64,000 nt of DNA from Atopsyche davidsoni (Eukaryota; Arthropoda; Insecta; Trichoptera; Hydrobiosidae), in NCBI GenBank assembly GCA_022113835.1, contig JAILWY010000013.1, positions 15,300,001 through 15,364,000 on the forward strand, read 5' to 3'. Positions 4,250 to 55,926 of this stretch are shown here, piece after piece; position 1 is the stretch's first letter, and every line of letters begins with the position of its first letter. The translations under genes and the position numbers were made by a program. The notes under the pieces are model-generated. The model was not told the origin of the DNA. It did no database searches and saw only the letters and a list, made by a program, of their open reading frames with translations.

Positions 4250-4810
4250 TTTGATGTCCAAAGAAAGTATCGGGTATTTATTAGTTCAGTAAAACAAAAA
4301 CTACTAGTAATGAAGTATTTTTTAATGTTGATTATAAGAATACAAAATGGAAAATTATTTCAAAAAGATGATGTTATGCAAAAGGTGACTGTTAAGCGCT
4401 GCTGGCACTCTTCTAATCTGAAACAAAGATTGCTGATAAAACGCTGACACATAACCCTCGATATTGCTGCCATTTTTGACCTGATGTTTTGTTTCAATTC
4501 CGTTAGGTTCATCGGATTATTCTCATAAACCCTACGTTTAAGGTATCCCTATACGAAATAGTCAAGAGGGCTAAGGTCGGGGCTTCTGAGAGGCCAGTTG
4601 ATGTTACATCTACGTGAAATGACCTTATTAGGGAATAATTCGTGAACAGCTTCAATTGATTGATTGGATGTATGGCAAGTGGTTTTGTTGGGACCGCGTT
4701 CTTGAGTTGAAATCTTGAAACTCCTGCAACTCTGGGCGCAAAAATTTTCGCAGCATATCGCAATAATAGTCACTATTCACATTTACCCGATACTCTTTTT
4801 GGACACCCTG
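4250..4810 (-). mobile_element. Tc1/mariner-like deletion derivative, copy 1
   Basis: This is a 561-bp element related to the copies at 18711 and 55352. The right end matches the family 26-bp terminal inverted repeat exactly (in the direction CAGGGTGTCCAAAAAGAGTA..., then TCGGGT). The left end is diverged but still carries GTCCAAAG and AGTATCGGGT. The right flank begins with TA, as expected for the superfamily; the left flank reads GT, so the TA duplication has decayed on that side. The interior holds only the C-terminal half of a transposase on the minus strand, as in the sister copies. Confidence 0.85.
4358..4786 (-). pseudogene. Truncated, frameshifted transposase (C-terminal half)
   Basis: The minus strand encodes the same polypeptide as the better preserved copy at 18818-19246, including an SPDLSPLDYFV-type catalytic block. 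It is broken by indels: the matching pieces fall into two overlapping frames (4509-4763 and 4549-4773). At the position of the second catalytic aspartate (FQQD in the sister copy) the reading is PNKT, with an extra base, so the aspartate codon is lost. The helix-turn-helix N-terminus and first catalytic aspartate are missing, as in all three copies. It cannot encode an active enzyme. Confidence 0.8.
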
Positions 4811-7800
4811 TAATTAGGTTAGGTTTAGGATTTATTTGGTTAAACCAATCTTTTGTTTAGGAATCGAAGGTTCTAAACAGTGTAAAATAAAATGATAAAA
4901 CTCTGCGTCTTAATGAAAAAGTAGAGTTGTACATTTATATTGATTTATGAAGGGGTTGAAACCCTTCTCACTGGTCTATATCCTATCTGTAATCTTCTTA
5001 ACCATTTACACAAAATGACACTCACTACATCCTAGGTATAAGATTTATGTATAAGCCCATAAATTAAGGTAAATTTTCAAAATGAATAAATCGAATAATA
5101 ATTCTATGATGTATAGATTTTATAGTACGCAACCATTTCGAAACTAGAAAAGCACTGGCATGCAGTAAATTTAAGACCTTAGCTTAAGAATTGAACACAT
5201 GTATATCAGAAAAAAAAAACAAAACTTACATTTGAAGATTTTTATAGAAAACAAAAATGTTATTCCTGAGGGCCTTTTAATAGTTGACTTGCAATTTTTT
5301 TTTTGCTTTTGAAATAACCAAAATTTTTAAGAACCAACAGAGAATTTATATGAATAGCTGCATTTTTTTTCAATATAAATATTTAAATATTTTCACAAGT
5401 TCTGGTGGATTTTTGGCAGAAAAATGAATGATAAAAAAAACACAAAAATAATATCTTACACAGCTGAAATAATGCTGCTTGTAAAAATATAAATAAATAA
5501 ATAAAAATTGATGTATAAAGAATACATTAATATTATATCAGATTTTGTATAAATATTTCATAAACTTGAGTTTTTAAGGGTTAATTACTACATTATCTCA
5601 ATTTGAAGTGTGCTGGTAAAACATTTTGACCTCCTACGCACCCCAGAGCAAAAAAACTTCTTGAAGTTCATACATGTTACATGTCATTTTTGTAGCAAAG
5701 ATTTAGTAATTGAACTTGGATAGTTAAAAAAAACACTATTAAAGTTTATATGTAGTCTAAGGATATTATACCAAGGAGATGACTTAATTTTGCAATAATC
5801 TAACGCCCAGGTCAGTGGAATTATTACATATTACTTAAAGTGTGTTCAAAAGCTTCACGCAAAAGTATCTCCTAAGCCAGGTGAGTTTGAGATTCCAATC
5901 ATAGGCTCGCGCTCTCCCCTCGCCACCCTCACGTTCCACAGTTATCTGTTTCGCTCTCTGCCCCGGGTTGGGATTACCCCGATGTTCCAGGCTACAGTTT
6001 ATTACCGCAAAAAACTACCCCGATCCCCACTGAAATATCAGCTGCCCAGGCTGTAAAATCACTAAAATGTTATTTGTTACATTTTTCTCACGCGCAAACC
6101 AATCAACGACTGCCTGTAAACCAAACATTATCCAAATTTACTTTTCGCTGTTTTCAGAGATGTTCATTGGAAAAAAATACTTTTTTTCTTTCTTTTTTTG
6201 TACTTTAATAATAATTTGAAACTTTGAGATAAAATATGCTTTAATAACATTAAAATAACAAATATATATTAAGGGTGGATTTCAGACTCACATATTCACG
6301 GTTATAGTGGCGCAGCGCTCTTTGACAACTGATTTGTAGATGAGCTATAATAAGAGTCGTTATATGCAAATGTGGAACTGACGTAAGAAGTTTTTAATAA
6401 ATGTAATTATTTTGAGTGAATATATAAAACACACACCTTAAAAAAACTTGTGTGATTGAAATCAATTCAATTTTTTATTTAAATAGATTTCAAATTTTTT
6501 TTGTTTAACTATTTGACTGCAATCCATATGTGATTAACTTTTAGTCAACAATAGTGTTAAATTAATAAAAAAAACATTTAACTTGTAATACAACCGTTTA
6601 TCTTTATTTTAGTACTTTATACTGTAAGCACATTTTTTAAATCTATTTTTTTTCTTATAGTTTAAGTCAAATTCAATATTTTTACGGTTGGAATGGCTCG
6701 GATATTTGAGAAAATCCTCACTCCAAGATCTGCTTAATAATAAAACCAACAGCAACGGCGGTTGTAAATCCGTATTAAGTGCTGGTCCCTTAGGAAGGCC
6801 AGGTGCTTAATATTCATTGAGTCAACTATTCAAGAACAACAATATCAGAAACAGTTTTGATTTCCCAGAGGTCTAAGCCCTTAATATAAATTTACCTATA
6901 AAACTTATTTGATTTTATACTAAGACATCGCTTATTTTTGAAAACTAAAAGGCTTTTTTGTTTTAAGTTTATTCGTTGTTTTAATTTTGCAGTAATAAAA
7001 ATTAACCAAATGTTCAAAGAACGTACAACTATTAGAAGAGTTTTAGAAATGCTGTATACTTGGATGTTATGCTGCGGTTTTTGTTGGTATCTTCAAGAAT
7101 TTAAAGATTACAAATACAATAAATTCAGCATAACACCAGAAGATACAGCATTTTTAAGCTTTCTGTTATAAATATATATTTTTTTTATTTACAGTAAGTT
7201 GAATACGTTGAATGTGAATATTAATAAAATCGATGAAAGTAGCATAGCTTAATTTATTTAACCACTCATTAAAGAAGGTCGAGTGAAAAACAGATATAAA
7301 ATTCAAGGAAACTCAGCCTCAAAATGTAGGCAAATTCTAAATTTAGATAAATAAAATATTATTCAAGCTCCGCGTTAGATTCTAACAAACCATTTGAAAA
7401 TCCAACTTTCGTAGAATTTTAAATACAGTGCGAGTACAGGAACTTTAATTATGAAGTAGATTTGCTTGAAATCCTTTCTGTAACGCGTGTTACATTTGAC
7501 GTCATCACATTAGCTACGGATTCCGGGGTTTTTAGGCTCAAAATGTTTTATAACATAATTCAGCTAATATTTTCAATAAATTATGATCAAATTTGTCCTA
7601 GAATACAATACAATTGATAAACACAAATCAAAATTAAATTAAAAACAAAAATGATCAATGGTTTTATATAATTGTACAATACATGGTTTAAAAGTGGCTG
7701 CTATATAATAAATGGTAAAACCATGTTAACGTTCATCGTTTTAATAAAAATAAAATTTTTATGTTATAAAAACAAACCATACATAAATGGTGTAAATAAA

Positions 7801-8406
7801 TGAAAAACATAAAATGTATTTTGTACACGAATGATCTCTCTTTGGAGGTCATTTACATTAAAATAATTAAACTCTTAAATTCAAAACAACCGATTTGCAC
7901 AAAAAAACATACTTTCTCACTAATATAAAAAAACAGCGTTCATAATTAAAGACCATTTCTTAGAGTATTAACGGCATCGTTATTATAATTTACGGCTTAA
8001 TAAAAACCCACGTTCGTACAATAAATACATTTTCATTAGCGAATAAACTAAGCAAATAAAAATTCGCACAGAGCGTTTAGAGGGCTAATGGCCCTCGGAG
8101 ACAGAGGTTCTGTATCCTCGTTTTTTTCCTCCGTCGTCATAACTTCCTCGCCACAATTGCACTTTCTCGTAAGTTCTGAAATAATCTTTCGTATCTTTTT
8201 TTATCGCGGCTTGCTAACGCCCAGGGATGTTCTCGAGAAAATGCCTTTTATGCTCTGTCTCAGCGGGGAGGTTTACCCCCCACTTGAGCACACTTGCTCC
8301 TGTACTTCTTAGCAGCAATAGGGATGCACAAAATCGATTTATATTTGATCGATTTAAATAAAATAGTTTGGTAATATAACCGATTTATAATCTTAAGGGT
8401 CTAAGT
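4811..8406. other. Long non-coding stretch with GC-richer islands
   Basis: No gene is supported. Three islands rise above the AT-rich background: about 5880-6060 (pyrimidine-rich, CCCCGGG), 6690-6830, and 8080-8310. They may be conserved non-coding DNA or old repeats; composition alone cannot decide. A perfect TGACGTCA lies at 7497-7504. The 74-codon frame at 8088-8312 shows no domain. Confidence 0.5.
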
Positions 8407-8738
8407 CCCATACTCGAGTTTTTTGATCATTTTCTGGATCGTTTTGCGAAAAATCGACTGCACCAATCAAACAAATTTAAATGCAAAAAGTTGGATACAT
8501 CTTTTTTTCAGAACAAAATATTTTTTTATTACGTGTAAATTTACTTTTAATATGATAAATATGTGTAAATATATGTACATTTTCCAAGAATCTTAACCAT
8601 TTAAAAGTCTTTTTTTTAATTGGAATTAAAATATTAAATATAAACCATGTGCGTCTTATAAATTTAAAAATTAAAAAAAAAAAAATCTTTAACAAACTTT
8701 GGTTTTGAAAAGTCGTCATTTTTCAACATCTTCAAGGT
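8407..8738 (+). repeat. Dispersed ~330-bp repeat, copy 1
   Basis: Starting from TCCCATACTCGAG, this stretch matches 11371-11722 in the same orientation through to GAAAAGTCGTCATTTT. Shared blocks include GCGAAAAATCGACTGCAC and GTAAATTTACTTTTAATATG. Indels separate the blocks. No ORF, TIR or tRNA-type promoter box is visible, so the class is unknown. Confidence 0.75.
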
Positions 8739-11370: not shown

Positions 11371-11722
11371 TCCCATACTCGAGGTTTTTTGATCACTTTC
11401 TGGTCCGCTTTGCGAAAAATCGACTGCACTAATAAAAAAAAATTAAATGCAAAAAGTAAGATACATCCCCTCTTCCGATCAAAATATATTTATATTTCTT
11501 GTAAATTTACTTTTAATATGATAAATATGTGTTTTTCCGATTGAAGTGTAGGAATTTGGAGATTCGCCGAGTCCTAAACATTTAAAAGTCTTTTTTTGAA
11601 TTGGAATTAAAAGATTAAATATAAACCCTGTGCGATTTATTATTATAAAAATAAAAAAAAATCTTTAACAAACTTTGGTTTTGAAAAGTCGTCATTTTAT
11701 CCAATTTTTCAAGTGTGGGCGA
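11371..11722 (+). repeat. Dispersed ~330-bp repeat, copy 2
   Basis: Second copy of the repeat at 8407, in the same orientation. It carries an extra stretch around 11535-11570 (GAAGTGTAGGAATTTGG...) that is not matched in copy 1. It begins just after the TA microsatellite. The class is unknown. Confidence 0.75.
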
Positions 11723-18710: not shown

Positions 18711-19270
18711 CAGGGTGTCCAAAGAGAGTATCGGGTATTTGTTAGTTCAGTAAAACGAAAACTAATAGTAATGAAGTATTTTTTTTAATTGTTGATTATA
18801 AAACTACAAATGGAAAATTATTTTAAAGAGATGATGTTATCCAAATGGTGACCGTTACGCTGCTGGCACTCTTCTAATCTGAAACGAAGATTGCTGATAA
18901 CACGCTGACACACAGCCCTCGATATTGCTGCCATTTCTGACCTGATGTTTTGTTTCAATTCCGTTAGGTTCATCGGATTATTCTCATAAACCCTACGTTT
19001 AAGGTATCCCCATACGAAATAGTCAAGAGGGCTAAAGTCAGGGCTTCTGGGAGGCAAGTTGATGTTACCTCTACGTGAAATGACCTTATTAGGAAATAAT
19101 TCGTGAACAGCTTCAATTGATTGATTGGATGTATGGCAAGTGTCTTGTTGGAACCATGTTCTTGAGTTGAAACTTTGAAACTCCTGCAACTCTGGGCCCA
19201 AATTTTTTCGCAGCATATCGCAATAACGATCACTATTCACATTCACCCGATACTCTTTTTGGACACCCTG
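18711..19270 (-). mobile_element. Tc1/mariner-like deletion derivative, copy 2 (best preserved)
   Basis: A 560-bp element flanked by TA on both sides. Its 26-bp terminal inverted repeats differ at one position only (CAGGGTGTCCAAAGAGAGTA... at the left, CAGGGTGTCCAAAAAGAGTA... on the other strand at the right, both ending TCGGGT). Between them lies the C-terminal half of a transposase gene on the minus strand and nothing else. Its 3' untranslated side is short and ends in the left repeat. Copies at 4250 and 55352 share the same arrangement, so the 5' half of the gene was lost before the family spread. These are non-autonomous elements that relied on a full-length relative. Confidence 0.92.
18818..19246 (-). 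pseudogene. Open C-terminal transposase remnant (DDE/D family)
   Basis: A 142-codon frame is open on the minus strand. It holds a WFQQD block (second catalytic aspartate, followed by TCH), then PPRSPDFSPLDYF (third catalytic aspartate) with 39 residues between the two aspartates. This is followed by WGYLKRRVYENNP and a helical tail ending NGHHLDNIISLK. That order is typical of Tc1/mariner-superfamily transposases in insects. The paired helix-turn-helix domain and first aspartate are absent, so it cannot catalyse transposition. The first codon of the frame is GTG, inside the terminal repeat; the same frame continues upstream through the repeat (GVQKEYRV), showing that no true start is present. 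Confidence 0.85.
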
Positions 19271-20890
19271 TATATTGAAGTGGCGCTCAAAGCCATTTCG
19301 TGTGACTTGGTGACGTCACAGACGGGAATATCGTGTTTCGCGGAGAGGCTATATTGCCGTGCGTATTAGTTACCGCCAGCTGCCTTCAGCCAAACGTCTG
19401 TTTTCTGCTCTTTGTCGGTTCCTGCTGGAAATTTGTCGAGATTACACTTTGTTTGGGACCGTTATTCTCCACATTTTACTACAGAGCCTAGGGGTTTTCC
19501 ACATCATACTAAGAAGCCATATTGGAGCAAATATTAAATAACAAAATACATGTATACATACCAATATACCACAGTATTGAAACAATTGTTTTATTTTTAT
19601 TAAAAATAAAATTAAATTGAGCATTAGGCTTGACAGAAATATGTCGTTTAACTCACCAATAAAATTGTTAAAAATATGACCTACTTATGGTGGCATTGGA
19701 TAAAAAGTGTCAATCATCATAGTATATCAGCATTATTATTTATTTACTTTTGCAAATGACAACATAAGATGGTGGGCAGAAAATACATCACAACTATCTG
19801 CCAAAAGCCGCTGCCAAGCGAATATTCAATATAACATTTCTGCCAGCAACAGAGTGCTGAAATATATAATATGTGTATAATTATATATACTTAAGGCCTC
19901 CAAAATCGAATACATTGAACTAATAAACCAGTTTTGAAGTCATAAATTGGACATATTTCAGCCTATTGATAAATATTGAAACATGAATAAAAGTTCTATA
20001 AATCAAAAGAAGGGATCAATAAAAATAATGAATTGTTTTCTGAGTTTACCAATTTATTTTTCAATATATAAGACTTGATATTTGAAATTGATTTAAGTGC
20101 AATGAAACTCTATTTTATCGTAAAATACCTACATTTTATTACATCAGCGATAGCAGGCAACTTTTTCTTAGGTTGCAGTCCCTTCAAATCTAATAATACC
20201 AAAATACAAAACTCGTATAACCGGAATCGGTTTTTTCAATTTTTCTTCCAAAACCAATCCGTCGTGGTTATCAATCATTTTTCCAATCGATTTATCTATG
20301 CGTTGCCTATATTTTTATTTTACTGACATTAATGTGTAGATTACTTATTGTTGTTGCCACCTGAATTGAAAATTTTTACCGAACCATCCAATATGCTTGA
20401 AAATGCAACCGGCATATCAATATTATGAAATTTGATTTTTTTCTACAAAGATCTTGAAAAATAAAAAAAACTAAATAATTGTTAAAATCATTTCGTGTGT
20501 AAATCGGTTTTATTGTAAAATAAAAACGGATGAATAATTGAACCATTGTTAATTAGTGGTAATCGTAATTTACTTTTAAATGCTGCATTCGAATTTAATA
20601 AAGCCACGAATGGTGTCGAATTTCACACTTGCATAAAACGATTTAAATTTTCGCTCAACTATGGAGCTACGGCCTTCGAAAAGATTACGGCGCTAGACTG
20701 CGATATTCTCCACCAGGTGTAAATTTGAATTCCAACTGTGTGTTGGAAAAAAAGTCTTTCTTGTTTTTTTTTCATTTTCTATTCATATTTTTTGACGCAG
20801 TTGTATAATATAATAAAGATTTGAATTCCCAAATATTTATCTAGCACCAGATAAATTACTTGCATATAATATAATGATTCAAGCATTAGT
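19271..20890. other. Non-coding stretch
   Basis: No gene. A perfect TGACGTCA lies at 19311-19318 in a CpG-richer patch (19290-19460) just outside the transposon. The rest is AT-rich. Confidence 0.55.
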
Positions 20891-35200: not shown

Positions 35201-36020
35201 AACATCTGCAGTCATCCTCCAATACTTTGACGAGATGATAATCTGTACTGTAATCCTTTTAAGTATTTTAGGGTTTAGGACTAAATTCTGCTTTTTTTTA
35301 AATCACAGAAAAATATGTAAGGATAATTATTTTTTCTGAACCAATGAGTATTATTCAAATCGTTTTTTTATACAAGTTCATTGTTTGTATAATATATCTT
35401 AATTTCAGATTCACACGTGAAATGACAAGAAACTTATTTTTTTAAAATGGTAAGGTTAAATAAAACACATTGGAGGTTCGAGAAAAACATTCATTTTTTT
35501 AATTTAATGTTCATCACTTTTTACGGGTGCAATAAATTCGTATAGAATAAAAATTTGTTATTTTACATATTTTTTGGTTTTTGAAAAGAAGTTTCTCTAA
35601 AATTCAGTAAATCTGATACTACTTTTTGAAAATCTCAAAAAATGTTCCTTGGAATAATATTTAGCTGCAGGATCAATAAATTGCTAAATAAAGCGGAAGA
35701 TTCCTGAAAATGAATAAAAATGGGCCCGACATTTAAATTACGCCAATTTGCCTTATTTTTAGCTCGTTTGGTCTCCGTCGAAGAAACAATTTCATGGTCG
35801 ATTGAGATTCAAATCGACCGAATTTCTCTGAACTCGGACCTCAAATGATCTCAAAGGCCCGAAGGCTCTGTGCTGGCCTGACTTATCACAATGCAAATAC
35901 CGAGCCAGGTCTTAAGAAACCTAATGGCCTCGGTTACGAATCAATGACCAAAAAGCCAATAATGTATGCTAAATAAGAAAACCCGTATAGATTAAATTCT
36001 ACTATTATAATATACATTTA
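29246..36020. other. Long AT-rich non-coding stretch
   Basis: No gene or element can be supported over nearly 7 kb. Slightly GC-richer segments occur at about 31930-32110 (contains GGTCAGTTGTG, an arthropod initiator-like word) and 35750-35950. A perfect TGACGTCA lies at 30723-30730. Confidence 0.5.
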
Positions 36021-36287
36021 TTTATGTGATTAAGCACATTTTTTCATACATTGAAAACAATTAAAGAAAACTCTCAGAAAATATCATCGTGACTTGTGAG
36101 GGATTCGAACCCACATCCCCAAGCTTTCATGGCCGGTGCATTTATCCAACTATGCTAACGAGCCACTGCAATTTAGTGAGAATTTTTAATAATCATATTC
36201 TACATATGAACTAATACACGATGATATTTTCTGAGAGTTTTCTTTAATTGTTTTCAATGTATGAAAAAATGTGCTTAATCACATAAA
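36021..36287 (-). mobile_element. Fold-back tRNA-derived element, copy A
   Basis: Two arms of 71 bp, 36021-36091 and 36217-36287, are perfect reverse complements with no mismatch. The 125-bp spacer contains a tRNA-like sequence read on the minus strand, whose 3' end runs into the left arm. Before the tRNA part (minus-strand sense) lies a 50-bp head starting TATTAGTTCATATGTAGAAT. This resembles the left arm of copy B at 54546, so the element seems to carry both an old diverged head and a fresh perfect arm. No protein is encoded and no clear target duplication is seen. It resembles a SINE with long terminal inverted repeats; transcription would give a strong hairpin displaying a tRNA-like loop. 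Confidence 0.85.
36089..36166 (-). other. tRNA-like core of fold-back element A
   Basis: On the minus strand the sequence begins GTGGCTCGTTAGCATAGTTG and ends AAGTCAC. The acceptor ends pair 6 of 7, counting one G-U. A D-stem GCAT/ATGC encloses the A-box TAGCATAGTTGG. A short anticodon-type stem GGC/GCT encloses CATGAAA (TGA in the anticodon position), and the T-arm has the exact B-box GGTTCGAATCC. The weak anticodon stem and imperfect T-stem, plus a diverged relative at 54612, point to a SINE head rather than a working tRNA gene. Confidence 0.7.
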
Positions 36288-39200
36288 CATACTAATACCT
36301 GCATGGGTAAATAAAAACGCATTCTGATTGACATTAATCTAAATTAATATACATTTATTTGTCAAAAATTAATACCTATAGGTATAAATATACTTACTGA
36401 AACGGACCTTGAATATATTATGGTTTTGTTTTATTATATTTTAACGACACAGAAATTATTTTTAGGGGCCTGCTTAAGTAAAGACGGTGGGGTGGATACA
36501 ATAAATATTTAATAATTGTCTAAAACATAAAAATAAACATATGAGATTAATATTACGTGTAATTCGTCATTGTTTATAGTTGCTTCTCATGTTTAATTGA
36601 TACTTATTGAAATTCATATAATGTTTATGCTTAATATAGCTAAACTTTTTTTCATCCTTGATTATGTTTTTTGGAGAATTTGAATAAAATTAAATGATGT
36701 TTATACTTGGAGAATATTCTAGAAATTGGCACTTATTTATGCCTCAATTATGTTTGCTTGATTTTTAAGATTAATTGTTATTTAAATGCACTTCTAATTA
36801 ATTTTTGTATGCATGCAGAGTTTATTTTCACTAACTATTTTCGTAGTTGTAATTATACCTACTTTTTATTAAAAGAAAAAAAAATCACGAAACACTGCCG
36901 CTTTGTGAATGTGTTTTTTTTATGTTCTGCTGGATATCTTACAAAGTTAATCAGTTACGTCATTATATTCAATACAAATTATTAAGCATTCAAACATTTT
37001 TATTGCTTTATTAGCTTCTCTTGTATCAGAAAGCGCATTGTAATATTTCTAATAAAAATGATACAGCTGCCAAGATTGTTACATTATAAACACTGCGATA
37101 TTTTGTGAATCTTAAACGAATACATCGCCTCTACCTTTACAGCCTTTTCCCTTGTTGTTTCCACGAAAAAGTACACAATAATTTCTTTCTGGCAAATTTA
37201 TCGTCCCAGGAGAAACACCTCCAAGGATACGTCTGAAAAAGTTTCATAAACTATCGGAGCTTCTGCGATTCATCGTCCACTATACTAAAGTGAACGAGGA
37301 ACATGGAAAGGATTTATTTTACTTTTTTCTGAAGAGAGAAAATAATCCCATGGATAAGAGGGCGGATTGATTGGCTTCCGTTTAACCTCACTAACAGCTC
37401 TTTTCTGCCGAATTCTCCAGAAATAAGTCGACATATTGTCTGGAAAATGAACAAGGCTTATTTTATATTTCAACACTCAAATGTAGGATTTTTTTCTTTT
37501 AGTAATGCAGATTTTTTATATCTTGATAGTTAAAATATTCTTTTGTAAAGTTTATTACAGCATAAAATCTATAATTAAAATACGTCATACTTATAAAACT
37601 GCATGCATTACCTTTATGTAGTGGCCATGCGTTCATATGACATAATAAATTCCATTGTTACTACTCAACAATATGATGTTTAATACCTCGTGCTTGTAAG
37701 TATATTTGCTCACAAACCATGTGGTCTTGGGTTTGTATTCGAATAAAGCAATCTTACTATTATCAATTAGTTTTAAATGTATTTTAAAAAGGCTGATAAT
37801 TTTAATTTGAATTACCCAAAAACCTGCAAATTGTAGTTCCCGAAATATTTTCTTTGAAATGTGAATATTTTTTTTTATAACAATACAAGTGTTTTTATAT
37901 TCATAATGAGGATATATTCGCAACGAGGATATAGTTTTAAAAAAGGTAAAGAGTTTATAAGTGAAAAATATATTCGTCAATTGTAACTGAAAATACAAAT
38001 ATTTTTATTTAAAGTATTGGAATTGAATTTTACTAATTACCTTCAGGTAAAATATTGAATACATGAAAATAATAATCCTTTGAGTATCATTTTAGGATAA
38101 TAATATTTATATAATAAATCAATTGATATTTTAAGAATGCCAAACAATATTATAGAATATTTTCAGAAGAAAAAATATTAAAGCAATGTTAAAACTCGGT
38201 TTGTTAAAAACGTTTTTCTTTAATTAATAAAAACAGCAGTATGAGTTAAACGTTATTAAAATTATGATTCAGTTATTTTAATTATATATTAATTTCCTAC
38301 GATTCATTAACAGATTTTTTTTTACTTGTGCGTATTTTACACAAATATGAAAAAATGTTTATACGAATGTATTTTTATCTTTCCAATTTTTCGGCAATTT
38401 AATTTATACGCACTGTTGCAAATGAACATTTAACGCGTTAATTTTATTCAGAGATTAGAGATAGCGTTTCATATTTTTTTAGTGGGACATTAATCTAAAG
38501 ATTATAAATAACTACTACTTTTCATATTCCTGCTGATTTTTTTGTGACAAGCAGATTTTTTTTGTGTCTATTAAAGATACTTATAAGTTTAATCATACTA
38601 AAGTAATATGATCGTGTGTGTACAAAAAGTTTATTATGAATTCTACATATAACTACTTAAGAAAATGTATATTTAGATACATTATTTTGGTATGTTGTTA
38701 CGTCATTAGGTTTTTAGATTAAATAAAGATATGTATATATATATATATATAAAATGCTGTAATCATTTTAAATTATACAATATAAGTTTTTATAACATTG
38801 AGTTTTCACGTTATGAACAAGCAAGGCCCAAAATAATTATTAAAAAAGGTTTGAAAGATAGCGTTTTCTCAAAACATTATTCTGGAGTAAGTATTTTTAT
38901 AATATTTTGAAAGCTTTTTTAAAGAACTGAAGTTTTCATTATATATCAATTTAAATAATCCTCCGCTCCATTTTTTAGCACCAACATTATGTTTAATGTT
39001 ATATCCTTATAAAATAATTCACTTTAATTTTTTGATGAACTCATTATGTTACTCTAAGCGTTTTTAATTTCACAAAAAAATTTAAAGATTGTTTTTTTTA
39101 CTGTCCATTCAATATGATTGTAAGTCATCAAATCATCTTTGAATTCTCGGTAAGTTAGTGACACTAAAAATCAATTGGCATGACCACAAGTCCCAAAAAA

Positions 39201-39522: not shown

Positions 39523-39625
39523 TGATATCATATATGATATCAAACATATATATTGATATATGATATCATATATGATATCAAACATATATATTGATATATG
39601 ATATTGTGTTGATATCATATACTAT
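39523..39625. repeat. Palindromic 38-bp tandem repeat
   Basis: Two identical 38-bp units (39523-39560 and 39561-39598) are followed by a partial third. Each contains the perfect 16-bp palindrome ATATCATATATGATAT. The array could extrude as a cruciform and may have grown by replication slippage. Confidence 0.8.
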
Positions 39626-42659: not shown

Positions 42660-43662
42660 ATGTCAACTTTTGTACCAACAAAACGCAATTTGCGGGAAGC
42701 TTTACTTTTCTGTTTCAATTGAAAGAAAAAACCAGCTGAAAGTCACCGATTGCTGTGTGATGTTTATGGTGAACATGCTCCATGGCAAAAAACGTGTGAG
42801 AACTGATTTCGACGCTTTACCAATGGTGATTTCGATGTAGATGACAAAACGTCCAGGCCAACCAAAATAATTCGAAGATGAAGAATTAGAGACATTGCTA
42901 GATAAAGACTCGTGTCAAACGCAAGCAAAACTCTCAGAATTATTGGGAGTTGATCGAGCAACAATTTCAAGACACATAAAAGCATTGGGAGTGATTCAAA
43001 AGCAAGGAAATTGGGTGCCACGTGAATTGAAGTCGAGAGGCGTCGAAAGGCAATTTTGTATTTCAAAAATGCTGCTTGAACGTCACAAAAAGAAGTCATT
43101 TTTGCATCGTATCATCACTGGTGATGAAAAATGAATTCAATGGAAAAAATCATGGGGTAAGCCCGGACATGCATCAACATCGACGGCCAGGCCAAATATT
43201 CATGGCGCCAAGGTAATGCTGTATAGTTGGTGGGATCAGAAGGGTGTCATCCACTATGAGCTGCTGAAACCAGGCCAAACTATCACGGGCGAGTGCTACA
43301 GACAACAATTGATGCGTTTGAAGCGAGCATTGGAAGAAAAACGGCCAGAATATGTGACCAGGCACAAGTTTGTAATTTTCCATTATGACAATGCTCGGCT
43401 ACATGTTGCTAAATCGGTTAAAACCTATTTGGAAAACAGTGGATGGGCAGTTCTGCCTCACCCGCCTTATAGCCCAGACCTTGCCCCTTCCGACTACCTC
43501 TTGTTTCAATCGATGCAGAATGGCCTTTTTGGAATATGCTTCACTTTAGAACAGGGTATCCAAAATTGGCTTGATTCTATCTTGGCTTCAAATGACGAAC
43601 AGTTCTTTTGGGATGGAATCCATAATTTTCCCGAAAGATGGAAAAAAGTATACAACATATAA
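42660..43662 (+). pseudogene. Decayed mariner transposase (cecropia/Hsmar1-like, DD34D)
   Basis: Reading from the ATG at 42660 gives an N-terminus typical of mariner (MSTFVPTKRNLREALLFCFN), with a helix-turn-helix region next. It continues with FEDEELETLL, LGVDRATISRHIKALG, GNWVPRELK, TGDEK, KPGHASTSTARPNIHGAK and WWDQKGVIHYELL to a stop at 43660-43662. The three catalytic aspartates are seen in GDEK (43123), HYDNAR (43387) and APSDY (43492). There are 34 residues between the second and third, as in mariner proper. Breaks: TGA after FCFN, TGA where Trp is expected in CENW and after GDEK, and a frameshift near 42870. The conserved WVPRELK and YSPDLAPSDY blocks match cecropia-type mariners, the group that gave human SETMAR. 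Terminal inverted repeats could not be found on either side. Confidence 0.92.
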
Positions 43663-43965: not shown

Positions 43966-44604
43966 GTTACCAAGTGTTCAGTGATTATTTTCGATAGTAA
44001 CTTTTAAAAAAAAGTTCACATTGAATAACAGTAAAAAATGATTAAAATCGTTGCTGTGCTTCAAGCGGAAAATTCACTTTGATACTTTGAATAAGGCGGA
44101 TGAACTATTTGTTTCAGTGTCTATTTATCTAAGCTGAAAATAATAAAAAAAACATTCGTTTAGTGGTATATAAATAATGTACATTTATGCGATTAAGCTT
44201 TGCGTATTTATATCTCAGTGTGTAAAGTACAATAGTCAATTTTAAAATTGTGAAAGTGGTCTGCACTACAGAATATAAGTGTTTTTTTTTTGTTTGTTTG
44301 TGATAAGAGAACTGCATTCAATGCGGTTAAAATTGTACAATTGCATTGGTGATATGCGTGTAATGCTGAATATAATGAAATAGGTACGTATATAATAAAG
44401 CAAGAACAATTTATGATTTAAAATTGGTTTTACAAGTAACTGAGAAAATGTCAATATAAAATTGTGTTTCGTTTAACAATGAAGAATGTAATAACTCTGC
44501 TTTAAAAAAAACTTCCTCGCTGTGACTGATTTTTTTTAGCTGATGTAGCTAAAGTTTAATTTAATAAATTTCGAGTTATTTATTTATGTAAAAATATTTT
44601 TAAA
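43966..44604. other. AT-rich non-coding stretch
   Basis: Nothing recognised. Confidence 0.6.
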
Positions 44605-44740
44605 AAAACTGCGCAATTACCAAAAAAAATACACTTGTACATCTGTGACTATATATATATATATATATTATAACTATATATATTCACAGATGTACTAGTG
44701 TGTTTTATTAGAAGGATTTTTTTCGTAACTGCGCAAAATT
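44605..44740. repeat. Fold-back (palindromic) element
   Basis: Inner arms 44631-44648 and 44684-44701 match 17 of 18 as reverse complements (ACACTTGTACATCTGTGA versus ACACTAGTACATCTGTGA). Outer arms around TGCGCA (44610-44615 and 44730-44735) also pair, GCGCAATTACCAAAAAAAAT against GCGCAGTTACGAAAAAAATC, with an extra ~11 bp on the right. The centre is (TA)n. It looks like a small fold-back MITE or a hairpin-forming repeat. No duplication of the target is certain. Confidence 0.65.
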
Positions 44741-46195
44741 TATATTATATATATATGTACATACATAAATATGTTTATAAAATCTTTATTTTTAAATAAT
44801 TAAACTTCAACTTATTATACAGGAAATATTAAGACAACATTGTAGCTCAAACTATTGACCAGAGAATTAAGGTTGATTGTCCAAGATTTTCAACAAGTGG
44901 TTAATACTATCGTCTTAGCAGAAATTTAGCCGGTAATTCCATTCTATAGCAAGGGAATATCAATGTAGCATTATTCAGCTAAGTTTATTTTAATATGATT
45001 TTATGGAAATGTAAGGTTACACTTACCAGTGTAAATTTTAATCTAGTTTGAACAAGATTCTAGTTCATATATAAAAATAAAGCCATCTTGATGTAAATAT
45101 TTTAGCATTGCGTCACGGTTTTTTTTGTGTAAAATATTATAACCAAATATTTGTCTACTAAAGCAGTTTCAATGAATCATGTAAATTTATATAAAAGTAA
45201 GAAGGTGTTCAAAAGTATACATATTTTTTAAAATTTAGGGATATCTTTTACGTAAAATTCGTGAAATAGTATAAATTTTATATAAGCGCTTTATATTGTA
45301 TACACAACAGGTGATAAAAATGAAAATCGAGTATCAATACTCTTTATGAATAATGAGACGATTGCGTTGTTTGGTTGTGCATAATTTTTTTCTATTTATA
45401 CCAAGATTTTTTGTTATCAAATTAAAAATACAAAATTCTTTGACGCACGTAAATCGTTTTTCAATATGAATGAAAACATGCGGGCTTAATTTTTTCTGTT
45501 TGTTTTTATCTACGATATTTTTTTTGCTTGTATTTACACGAACCTTTTGATAAAATACGCTGAAAACGTCGTTTTAAACGTTTAATTCCATATTTGTTTA
45601 TTTATCAATTTTCGAAAATGCTTTTATAAATTATATTCCTTTCATTTTTTTTTCTATTTGATTTGACATTTTTATGATTTTTGTACGCAATATAATCAAA
45701 TTTCCAATCACCAGCTCTCGTAAGCGTCATTGTAAATAAGATCAAAGACAGGTTAGGTAAGATATATTTTATTGAAAGGTTCAACGACGGAGAATTTGAA
45801 ATCAATTAATTAATGTGAGTCAGATTAGGCAAGATGGATTTAAATATAAGACACTGGCTTCAAGCTGAGTAAAAACAGATAAACCAAATCTTAATTATTT
45901 TTGAAAAATGCTATTCATTTTGATTTCAAAGGTAGTCAAAAAAGTAACGACTTCTAATATAATCACCTTGAGGTTGTTTTAGGGACTTATTTTCAACGCT
46001 ACTAGTTATTATTCTGTGTGTAAAAAATTAGAATTCAGTTAACAAATATAGATATCCATTTTACTTGAATATTAAATGTATGGATTAAAGAATTGGATTC
46101 ATTAAACGTTTAATGATAATGATGACAAAAGCCCCATTTTCAATACTCCTGTCCTCCTTCAAGAGTCCTGGTCTCCTCCAAGGAAGTGTGTCAGT
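44741..46195. other. AT-rich non-coding stretch
   Basis: No gene or element recognised. Confidence 0.6.
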
Positions 46196-54030: not shown

Positions 54031-54545
54031 GGCATGTATGACGTATAAACTTAATAAAACCATAGCGAATCAATATTGTTAAAAAATATTACCAAGTCAT
54101 ACCTCAAATGCATGCATTTGACTATTAAATAGTCAGGATTTAAAAATATTTATGGACTCGATTTTTTCACAATTCGAAGTTAACAAATGTCTGATACTAT
54201 TCAGTAGTCTATAAAATGAATATTTCTTAATTTTAAGTTAATCTTTTACTGAAATGTTCAATTCAATATATTTTTACTTTATACAATTTATGTTATTAAT
54301 AGCATTTTCTTTTTTAATAAATCATTTCATCTTTCTTCACCAAAACCAGCTAGGATCACTATTAGTGTAATAAATTTGTAATAAAAAATATATAACCGTC
54401 TAGTTCCTGAATCAAATGTACAACTTTTTTATAGTCTTGATAGCTTTATATTATAAATATAAGGTTTTTTTTACATATGTCGATTTTTTTATTAAACGTC
54501 AATTAGATGCGTATTTATTACCAATTACGGGTTAATTATATTATT
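54031..54545. other. AT-rich non-coding stretch
   Basis: Nothing recognised. Confidence 0.6.
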
Positions 54546-54762
54546 ACTAATATGATTAGGCACATTAGTTCATACATAGAAGATGATTTAAAGAAACTAA
54601 CCCTTGTACTAACGAATTGTTAGGATTAACGAAGGGTTAGTACACAGGCCATGTAAGCCAGGGGATGTGGGTTCAAATCCCACACAAATCACGATGATAT
54701 TTTTCTGAGAGTTTCTTTAAATCATCTTCTATGTATGAACTAATGTGCCTAATCATATTAGT
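54546..54762 (+). mobile_element. Fold-back tRNA-derived element, copy B
   Basis: Two 53-bp arms, 54546-54598 and 54710-54762, are perfect reverse complements. The 111-bp spacer contains a tRNA-like sequence on the plus strand followed by CACGATGATATTTTTCTGAG, the same tail that follows the tRNA part in copy A (36021-36287). The arms of A and B are recognisably the same family but differ at many positions and by indels, while within each copy they are identical. A smaller inverted repeat (CTAACCCTT at 54597 / AAGGGTTAG at 54632) is nested in the spacer. No protein is encoded. Confidence 0.85.
54612..54692 (+). other. tRNA-like core of fold-back element B
   Basis: The T-arm is well formed: stem GTGGG/CCCAC around TTCAAAT. 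An anticodon-type stem GGC/GCC encloses CATGTAA, with TGT in the anticodon position. The sequence ends AAATCAC, as in copy A. The D-arm and 5' acceptor strand are decayed. It is homologous to 36089-36166 on the other strand and is not a functional tRNA gene. Confidence 0.6.
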
Positions 54763-55351: not shown

Positions 55352-55926
55352 CACGTGTGTCCAAAAAGGGTATCGGGTATTTGTTTTAGGTAGTGACCGT
55401 TATTGCGATATGCTGCAAAAATGTTTGGGCCCAGAGTTGCAGGAGTTTTAAGTTTTCAACTCAAGAGCGAGGTTTTAATAAGACGGGGCCACTTGATATA
55501 CATCCAATCAATCAATTGAAGCTGTCAACGAATCATTTCTTAATAAGGTCATTTCACGTAGAGGTAACATCAACTGGCCTCCCAGAAGCCCCGACCTTAG
55601 CCCTCTTGACTATTTCGTAAGGAGATACCTTAAAAGTAGGGTTTATGAGAATAATCCGAAGAATTTAAACAGAATTGAAACAAAACATCAGGTCAGAAAT
55701 GGCAGCAATATCGAGGGCTATGTGTCAGCGCGTTATCGGCAATCTTCGTTCCAGATTAGAAGAGTGCCAGCATCGTGTAACGGTCACCATTTGGATAACA
55801 TCATCTTTTTGAAATAATTTTCCATTATGTATTCTTATAATCAACAATAAAAAAAAAACTTGATTACAAGTAGTTTTTTTTTTTTACTGAACTAACAAAT
55901 ACCCAATACTCTCTTTGGACACCTTT
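55352..55926 (+). mobile_element. Tc1/mariner-like deletion derivative, copy 3
   Basis: This 575-bp element lies on the opposite strand from the copies at 4250 and 18711 and is flanked by TA (55350-55351 and 55927-55928). Both ends keep GTGTCCAAA and a TATCGGGT/TATTGGGT-type inner part of the terminal repeat, with the outermost bases diverged. It has the same gene-half structure: the terminal repeat passes almost directly into GACCGTTATTGCGATATGCT, equivalent to the start of the transposase remnant in copy 2. Confidence 0.85.
55391..55817 (+). pseudogene. Truncated, frameshifted transposase remnant
   Basis: The plus-strand equivalent of 18818-19246. It begins with DRYCDML-like codons and ends NGHHLDNIIFLK-like at a TAA (55815-55817). 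The QQD catalytic block is destroyed (the reading there is FNKTGP), and indels split the frame, though the SPDLSP...DYF region is still legible around 55585-55620. It is inactive. Confidence 0.75.

What the first reader, a model, noticed from the sequence alone, without database searches (positions are those of the whole stretch)
36021..36287. tRNA-like sequence enclosed by a perfect 71-bp inverted repeat
The arms 36021-36091 and 36217-36287 are exact reverse complements, and the 125-bp spacer carries a tRNA-like sequence with exact A- and B-box words. In AT-rich neutral DNA a perfect 71-bp repeat is either very young or maintained. Typical tRNA SINEs do not have terminal inverted repeats, and typical fold-back MITEs do not carry a Pol III promoter, so this joins two element types. 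A transcript would be a long hairpin capped by a tRNA-like domain, a possible source of small RNAs.
Basis: partly seen in the sequence, partly recalled or inferred. Interest (0 to 1): 0.8.

Follow-up and report, generated by a model that had tools for sequence, protein, structure and literature searches.

The report
Retroposon inserted as mirror-image halves
The mirror-image DNA around a tRNA-like stretch is one insertion of a common, young mobile element whose copies are laid down as two halves joined head to head, an insertion style known from Penelope-type retroelements and seen here in a very small element that carries a tRNA-like part.

Summary
Confirmed: a perfect 71-bp inverted repeat around a tRNA-like sequence. 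The SINE-plus-MITE reading is not supported: one side carries 64 further bases and a 16-bp direct repeat flanks the whole. In the 371-Mb genome this is one insertion of an abundant family with a 400-405-bp monomer (1,666 exact words of the tRNA-like part; 825 of another part). Of 45 insertions tabulated, 43 are monomer stretches joined head to head; 41 of these end near monomer base 342 on one side and 405 on the other; 42 of 45 have an exact flanking duplication of 9 bp or more, mode 12. Many are tandem arrays, one with 22 tRNA words. The arms match because both halves appear to copy one template. This is the published insertion anatomy of Penelope-like retroelements (PMC3846280, passages and Discussion). 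Best explanation: a small non-autonomous retroposon inserted by a Penelope-type machinery, with a tRNA-like domain and no hammerhead found. Membership is unproven: the genome search for the partner's endonuclease domain was sent 20 times and never answered.

The parts
36008..36023 (.). left copy of the 16-bp flanking direct repeat (target duplication; about 7 bases may be overlap with the element end)
36345..36360 (.). right copy of the 16-bp flanking direct repeat
36019..36216 (-). first half of the insertion: monomer bases 341 to 144, 100% identical to the monomer of L037
36217..36351 (+). second half: monomer bases 269 to 404, 98.5% identical
36021..36091 (.). inverted arm 1 (monomer 339-269)
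36217..36287 (.). inverted arm 2 (monomer 269-339)
36089..36164 (-). tRNA-like domain (ARAGORN Ser-TGA; Rfam 36090-36164)
36165..36216 (-). stretch J (monomer 144-195), an imperfect inverted partner of the arm stretch inside the monomer itself
36216..36217 (.). head-to-head junction, monomer 144 against 269
36288..36351 (+). tail present at this end only
54485..54596 (-). older related copy B, half with the tail end: monomer 396 to 291, 72% identical
54643..54758 (+). older related copy B, other half: monomer 222 to 336, 84% identical; perfect 53-bp arms 54546-54598/54710-54762
54631..54691 (+). decayed tRNA-like domain of copy B, 23.3 bits, below the gathering score of 29

Best explanation
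36019-36351 is one insertion of a young, abundant, non-coding retroposon with a 400-405-base monomer that holds a tRNA-like domain. It is inserted in the way of Penelope-like elements. An endonuclease cuts AT-rich DNA with a stagger of about 12 bp. Each cut end primes a copy of the element RNA: one at the 3' end (monomer 405, tail included), one about 63 bases further in (monomer 342). The copies run inward for variable lengths, often more than once through the monomer, so the template is circular or multimeric, and they are joined head to head. Their overlap is an inverted repeat that is perfect at birth because both halves copy the same template. Shown by sequence: monomer, tandem arrays, head-to-head order, two end classes, flanking duplications, agreement of the two halves. 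Inferred: RNA template, priming from both cuts, circular or multimeric template, a Penelope-type enzyme in trans, transcription from the tRNA-like promoter.
For: Monomer and arrays. 43 of 45 insertions inverted, 41 of 43 with one end in 325-352 and the other at 395 or more, 42 of 45 with an exact flanking word of 9 bp or more, 34 of 45 of them 11-14 bp. Mismatched flanks reach 9 bp in 27 of 1,806 pairs. Mixed-strand clusters always head to head: 9 of 9 (first 100 of 825 words) and 20 of 20 (first 100 of 1,666 words). Two halves agree: 0 mismatches in 23 of 31 loci; 35 of 45 departures from the monomer in one half are mirrored in the other. Target motif is alike read from both sides: base before the duplication is A in 3 of 41, base after it T in 6 of 41. 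Inner ends lie at 120-150 (28 of 86) or 210-300 (39 of 86), the edges of the predicted rod and tRNA-like part. Same anatomy published for Penelope.
Against: No partner enzyme shown: PF01541 search unanswered 20 times. No hammerhead core in the monomer and no ribozyme family in Rfam at E up to 1, although Penelope-like elements are reported to carry minimal ones (PMC7761336 passages). Not all copies are inverted: L079, L086, L091, L097, L099; of these five only L086 has a flanking word of 9 bp or more. Ends outside the two classes: L023, L037, L093. Junctions are shared by groups of 5, 3, 3 and 2 insertions, once with the ends exchanged (L019), so mirror structures are also copied as such. The 45 come from capped best-match lists that favour young copies, and the first query favours inverted ones.
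Confidence: 0.62

Rival explanations
1. A tRNA SINE moved by an ordinary LINE, with unusually frequent twin priming (inversion during target-primed reverse transcription).
For: tRNA-like domain with promoter boxes; variable duplications and fixed 3' end.
Against: Inverted in 43 of 45; second start site fixed near 342; the stretch below 342 is present in both halves, so the RNA part was copied twice; multi-unit arrays on both sides.
Confidence: 0.17
2. Penelope-type insertion, but by self-priming on an antisense RNA rather than by two primed copies (the view favoured in PMC3846280).
For: Head-to-head order; a few junctions have nearly equal inner ends, a tight fold-back: 359/359, 252/255, 321/328.
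Against: Most inner ends are far apart, as 144/269 here; both ends carry microhomology-like overlap with the duplication; tandem units on both sides.
Confidence: 0.2
3. A fold-back element whose arms are kept identical in place by template switching during DNA replication.
For: Perfect arms in two copies that differ at 13 of 52 positions; the process is documented (PMC8794818 abstract, PMC6649704 passages).
Against: Does not explain arrays, fixed end classes, flanking duplications, or a new junction in nearly every young copy.
Confidence: 0.06
4. A DNA transposon, or an integrated DNA circle with tandem units.
For: Head-to-tail arrays; inverted ends resemble fold-back transposons.
Against: Duplication length varies, ends are not matching inverted repeats (one has a tail), and a circle integrating at random would not give two fixed end classes.
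Confidence: 0.07
5. Assembly artefact at a collapsed or inverted junction.
For: Perfect arms; reads were not available.
Against: Dozens of loci on many contigs, each with its own junction and matching flanking duplication; copy B has diverged with both arms.
Confidence: 0.02

Closest known systems
Penelope-like elements with GIY-YIG endonuclease (PMC3846280: passages and whole Discussion; PMC8969392: passages)
   Same: Inverted copy mostly head to head; tail optionally on one of the inverted ends; partial tandems; short target duplications (8, 9, 10 bp reported); AT-rich targets; terminal sequences alone moved an unrelated gene in trans.
   Different: This element is a 400-405-bp non-coding monomer with a tRNA-like domain; tail about 63 bases rather than 31; no hammerhead core found; arrays of many units; partner enzyme not shown.
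Metazoan non-LTR retrozymes (PMC7761336: passages)
   Same: Small non-coding tandem units, proposed circular RNA copied by another element's reverse transcriptase.
   Different: Retrozymes are defined by hammerhead ribozymes, not found here; units of 150-300 bp; head-to-head inversion is not mentioned in the passages I saw.
tRNA-derived SINEs (general knowledge; PMC6887750 passages)
   Same: RNA-gene-derived promoter-bearing part, retroposition-like duplications.
   Different: tRNA-like part lies inside the unit, insertions are inverted and tandem, LINE tail not shown.
MER6, a mariner MITE carrying a SINE piece (PMC6887750: passages)
   Same: Precedent for a SINE part inside another element class.
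   Different: MER6 has 24-bp terminal inverted repeats and TA duplications; this element does not.
Schistosoma W-elements (PMC8490949: passages)
   Same: Satellite-like tandem units, some about 400 bp, with a proposed mobile origin.
   Different: No head-to-head insertions with end-specific tail in the passages I saw.

Membership tests
Penelope-like elements | inverted second copy, mostly head to head | tested here: met
   43 of 45; 9 of 9 and 20 of 20 mixed clusters
Penelope-like elements | tail at one of the two inverted ends only | tested here: met
   41 of 43 inverted insertions; tail is about 63 bases, 31 in the paper
Penelope-like elements | partial tandem copies | tested here: met
Penelope-like elements | short target duplication | tested here: met
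   exact word of 9 bp or more in 42 of 45, mode 12, partly lengthened by overlap with the element ends; 7 of 10 testable places
Penelope-like elements | reverse transcriptase with GIY-YIG endonuclease, own or in trans | not tested
   PF01541 search of the genome did not complete (20 tries, listed in Tried and rejected); a 405-bp unit is too short to encode it
Penelope-like elements | minimal hammerhead in the terminal repeat (commonly reported, not defining) | tested here: not met
   no CTGANGA on either strand of the monomer; no ribozyme family at E up to 1 in L037 1500-3100; genome search RF00163 uninformative, its controls were silent too
Metazoan retrozyme | hammerhead ribozyme in each unit | tested here: not met
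Metazoan retrozyme | circular RNA | not testable with these tools
   no RNA data
tRNA SINE | tRNA-derived promoter part | tested here: met
tRNA SINE | single unit in one orientation between duplications | tested here: not met
   43 of 45 inverted
tRNA SINE | 3' tail shared with a LINE | not tested
   no search for LINE tails was made
MITE / fold-back DNA transposon | inverted repeats at both termini | tested here: not met
   one end extends about 63 bases beyond the repeat
MITE / fold-back DNA transposon | target duplication of fixed length | tested here: not met
   exact words of 9 to 21 bp, blurred by overlap and, in L014, by a TA run

The most novel reading that the evidence does not exclude
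A ribozyme-free, retrozyme-like parasite: a 400-405-nt circular RNA with a tRNA-like domain is reverse transcribed from both cut ends of the target at once, from two fixed start sites about 63 bases apart, going round the circle several times, so that palindromic arrays of many units are laid down in a single step.
Probability: 0.3. Interest if true: 0.82.

Novelty: new variant of a known kind. Interest (0 to 1): 0.62.

Why it matters
How Penelope-like elements make head-to-head inserts with a tail on one end is left open in the paper I read (PMC3846280 Discussion). A tiny element with many hundreds of near-identical copies, a new junction in nearly every young one and clean flanks makes that testable by statistics: two start sites, a symmetric cut motif with a stagger of about 12 bp, stops in the structured region. 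It also shows how a small retroposon may place long perfect palindromes and satellite-like arrays in a genome in one step, and warns that perfect arms need not mean selection on a hairpin.

Tried and rejected
Rejected: SINE-MITE chimera (tail on one end, variable duplications); arms mended in place as the main cause (new junctions in near-identical copies); my own early idea that stretch J is an old arm left beside a renewed one: the monomer has J natively.

Led nowhere: arm and longer patterns had no hit in viral contigs or genome contigs; a B-box pattern hit four viral contigs and a 19-base pattern one bacterial MAG and one viral contig, none with wider similarity to the element. The mariner protein search listed 120 of 1,727 hits, those with names being ant and spider mariners; the host was not identified. 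Rfam hammerhead search of the genome found nothing, but its controls were silent too. Covariation on the monomer stem gave no support: 1 double change, 52 one-sided and 53 broken or gapped of 2,860 cells, and paired sites vary no less than unpaired ones, 1.5% against 1.1%. Monomer bases 190-268, which hold most of the tRNA-like part, vary least (21 of 3,397 cells against 96 of 5,027 in J and T, p 3e-7), but the copies are not independent. Literature searches that listed no tRNA-bearing element of this kind: (listings only, apart from the papers named); one search was on template switching. The library is open-access only, so this does not show that none is in print.

Dropped before counts: L028 and L030-L036, which repeat insertions held in L037-L046; L047-L076, which were not analysed as loci (several repeat L037, L038, L040 and L077-L089); segments at or below 90% identity or under 18 bases, so older copies such as B are not among the 45. 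One search looked at 32 loci; L041 had no testable overlap. In some searches eleven places were read, L090-L094 and L096-L100 being single-word or small clusters near the start of the lists, and L095 a mixed cluster; L096 starts too near the element for its duplication to be tested.

Full report
What was reported. A perfect 71-bp inverted repeat with a tRNA-like spacer is present at the stated coordinates; the only comparable one found in the window is its relative at 54546-54762. Missed: an exact 16-bp direct repeat brackets a longer stretch, and the relative also has perfect arms, 53 of 53, although the two copies differ at 13 of 52 arm positions, each difference being present in both arms.

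The genome. After ten unanswered tries the window's own assembly (370.7 Mb, 80 contigs) answered (113 matches, 40 of 1,165 candidates scored). It listed copies 85-96% identical over nearly the whole query and some twenty places identical over its first 196 bases. Reading ten of those places showed the real unit: a 405-bp monomer, often in head-to-tail arrays, nearly identical between loci. I number it 1-405 in the orientation of the tRNA-like part, from an arbitrary start: stretch J 144-195, tRNA-like part about 196-271, arm stretch 269-339, tail about 343-405, linker 1-143. A 28-base word of the linker occurs 825 times and a 27-base word of the tRNA-like part 1,666 times; the reversed words do not occur. 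Monomers of about 400, 403 and 405 bp exist, mostly uniform within an array.

Anatomy of an insertion. In 43 of 45 tabulated insertions a stretch of monomer on one strand meets a stretch on the other strand head to head, so that both outer ends are 3' ends. In 41 of the 43 one outer end lies at 325-352 and the other at 395 or more; the two exceptions are L023 (334/386) and L037 (309/405). An exact flanking word of 9 bp or more is found in 42 of 45, most often 12 bp; flanks of different loci reach 9 bp in 27 of 1,806 pairs. The 45 come from two capped best-match lists. As a check, word positions not chosen for inversion were taken: the first 100 of 825 linker words form 37 clusters, 9 with both orientations, all 9 head to head, 7 on one strand, 21 single; the first 100 of 1,666 tRNA words form 35 clusters, 20 with both orientations, all 20 head to head, 3 on one strand, 12 single. 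Of eleven places near the start of those lists, mostly single-word ones, eight are inverted and three are not (L091, L097, L099); the three have no duplication of 9 bp. The largest array in the lists has 10 words on one strand and 12 on the other; L077 has about 8 and 4 units.

The window copy is a small case: monomer 341 to 144 on the minus strand at 36019-36216, then 269 to 404 on the plus strand at 36217-36351, between copies of TAATATACATTTATTT. The perfect repeat is the part that both halves contain. In other insertions the halves also agree: no mismatch in 23 of 31 testable loci, and 35 of 45 departures from the monomer in one half are mirrored in the other; some of the remainder lie at the junction edge, where alignment is uncertain.

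How it most likely works. Variable duplications, a nearly fixed 3' end that overlaps the target, and new junctions in nearly every young copy (25 distinct in 26 insertions at 99% or more; 10 distinct in 17 below that) point to reverse transcription at the target. The target motif is alike from both sides: A in 3 of 41 before the duplication, T in 6 of 41 after it. This suggests that one endonuclease cuts both strands and that each end primes a copy, one at base 405 and one near 342. Inner ends gather at 120-150 (28 of 86) and 210-300 (39 of 86), the edges of the region predicted to fold into a rod with the tRNA-like part at its tip, as if the enzyme stopped there. Tandem units on both sides need a circular or multimeric template. 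These steps are inference.

Comparison. The Penelope paper describes this anatomy: inverted copies mostly head to head, a 31-bp tail optionally on one of the inverted ends, partial tandems, duplications of 8 to 10 bp, AT-rich targets, and movement of an unrelated gene by the terminal sequences (PMC3846280; passages, whole Discussion). Its authors favour self-priming on an antisense template and leave the cycle open. Here the inner ends are often far apart, as 144 and 269, which fits two separate copies better than a tight fold-back, though some are close (359/359, 252/255, 321/328). Animal retrozymes are tandem, small and non-coding, but defined by a hammerhead (PMC7761336 passages), not found in this monomer. 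Arm mending by template switching is documented (PMC8794818 abstract; PMC6649704 passages) but does not explain arrays, tails and new junctions. A SINE piece inside a MITE has a precedent, MER6 (PMC6887750 passages), with features that this element lacks.

What speaks against. The search for a Penelope-type endonuclease domain in this genome did not complete, so no partner is shown. Penelope-like elements are said to carry minimal hammerheads; none was found. Some junctions are shared by several insertions, once with the ends exchanged (L019), so mirror structures are also copied whole. Non-inverted copies exist. The part of the monomer with the tRNA-like domain varies least, which fits a promoter but is not proof; a Pol III transcript would probably stop at the TTTT just after it, so the template RNA may arise otherwise. 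I therefore say that it works like a Penelope-type insertion and do not file it as a proven member.

Verdict. It is a new variant of a known kind: a very small, abundant, tRNA-bearing retroposon with Penelope-type insertion anatomy.

Noticed in passing
G000:C1:12837110-12845848: Palindromic array with 10 exact tRNA words on one strand and 12 on the other, about 405 bp apart.
   Followed up: partly
G000:C1:16521016-16527073: Palindromic array of the 400-bp monomer variant, 6 and 10 tRNA words.
   Followed up: no
L018 1501-2323 and L096 27-717: Insertions with an extra strand switch or a repeated 341-405 tail, suggesting template jumps.
   Followed up: no
L093 633-1354: Inverted insertion whose outer end is at monomer 190 instead of 342, with an exact 15-bp flanking word.
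   Followed up: no
42871-43659: Mariner transposase remnant in two adjacent open stretches (Transposase_1, E 5.4e-24; HTH_24).
   Followed up: partly
4255-4812, 18714-19272 and 55357-55923: Three copies of one repeat, 87-92% identical; the open stretches at 18821-19315 minus and 55497-55814 plus look transposase-like by eye but have no Pfam match.
   Followed up: partly
44577-44771: Imperfect self-complementary stretch, about 70%, unrelated in sequence to the finding.
   Followed up: no
39523-39604: 38-bp unit repeated 2.2 times at 100%, itself partly palindromic.
   Followed up: no
8406-8736 and 11371-11713: Direct repeat pair, 81% identical.
   Followed up: no
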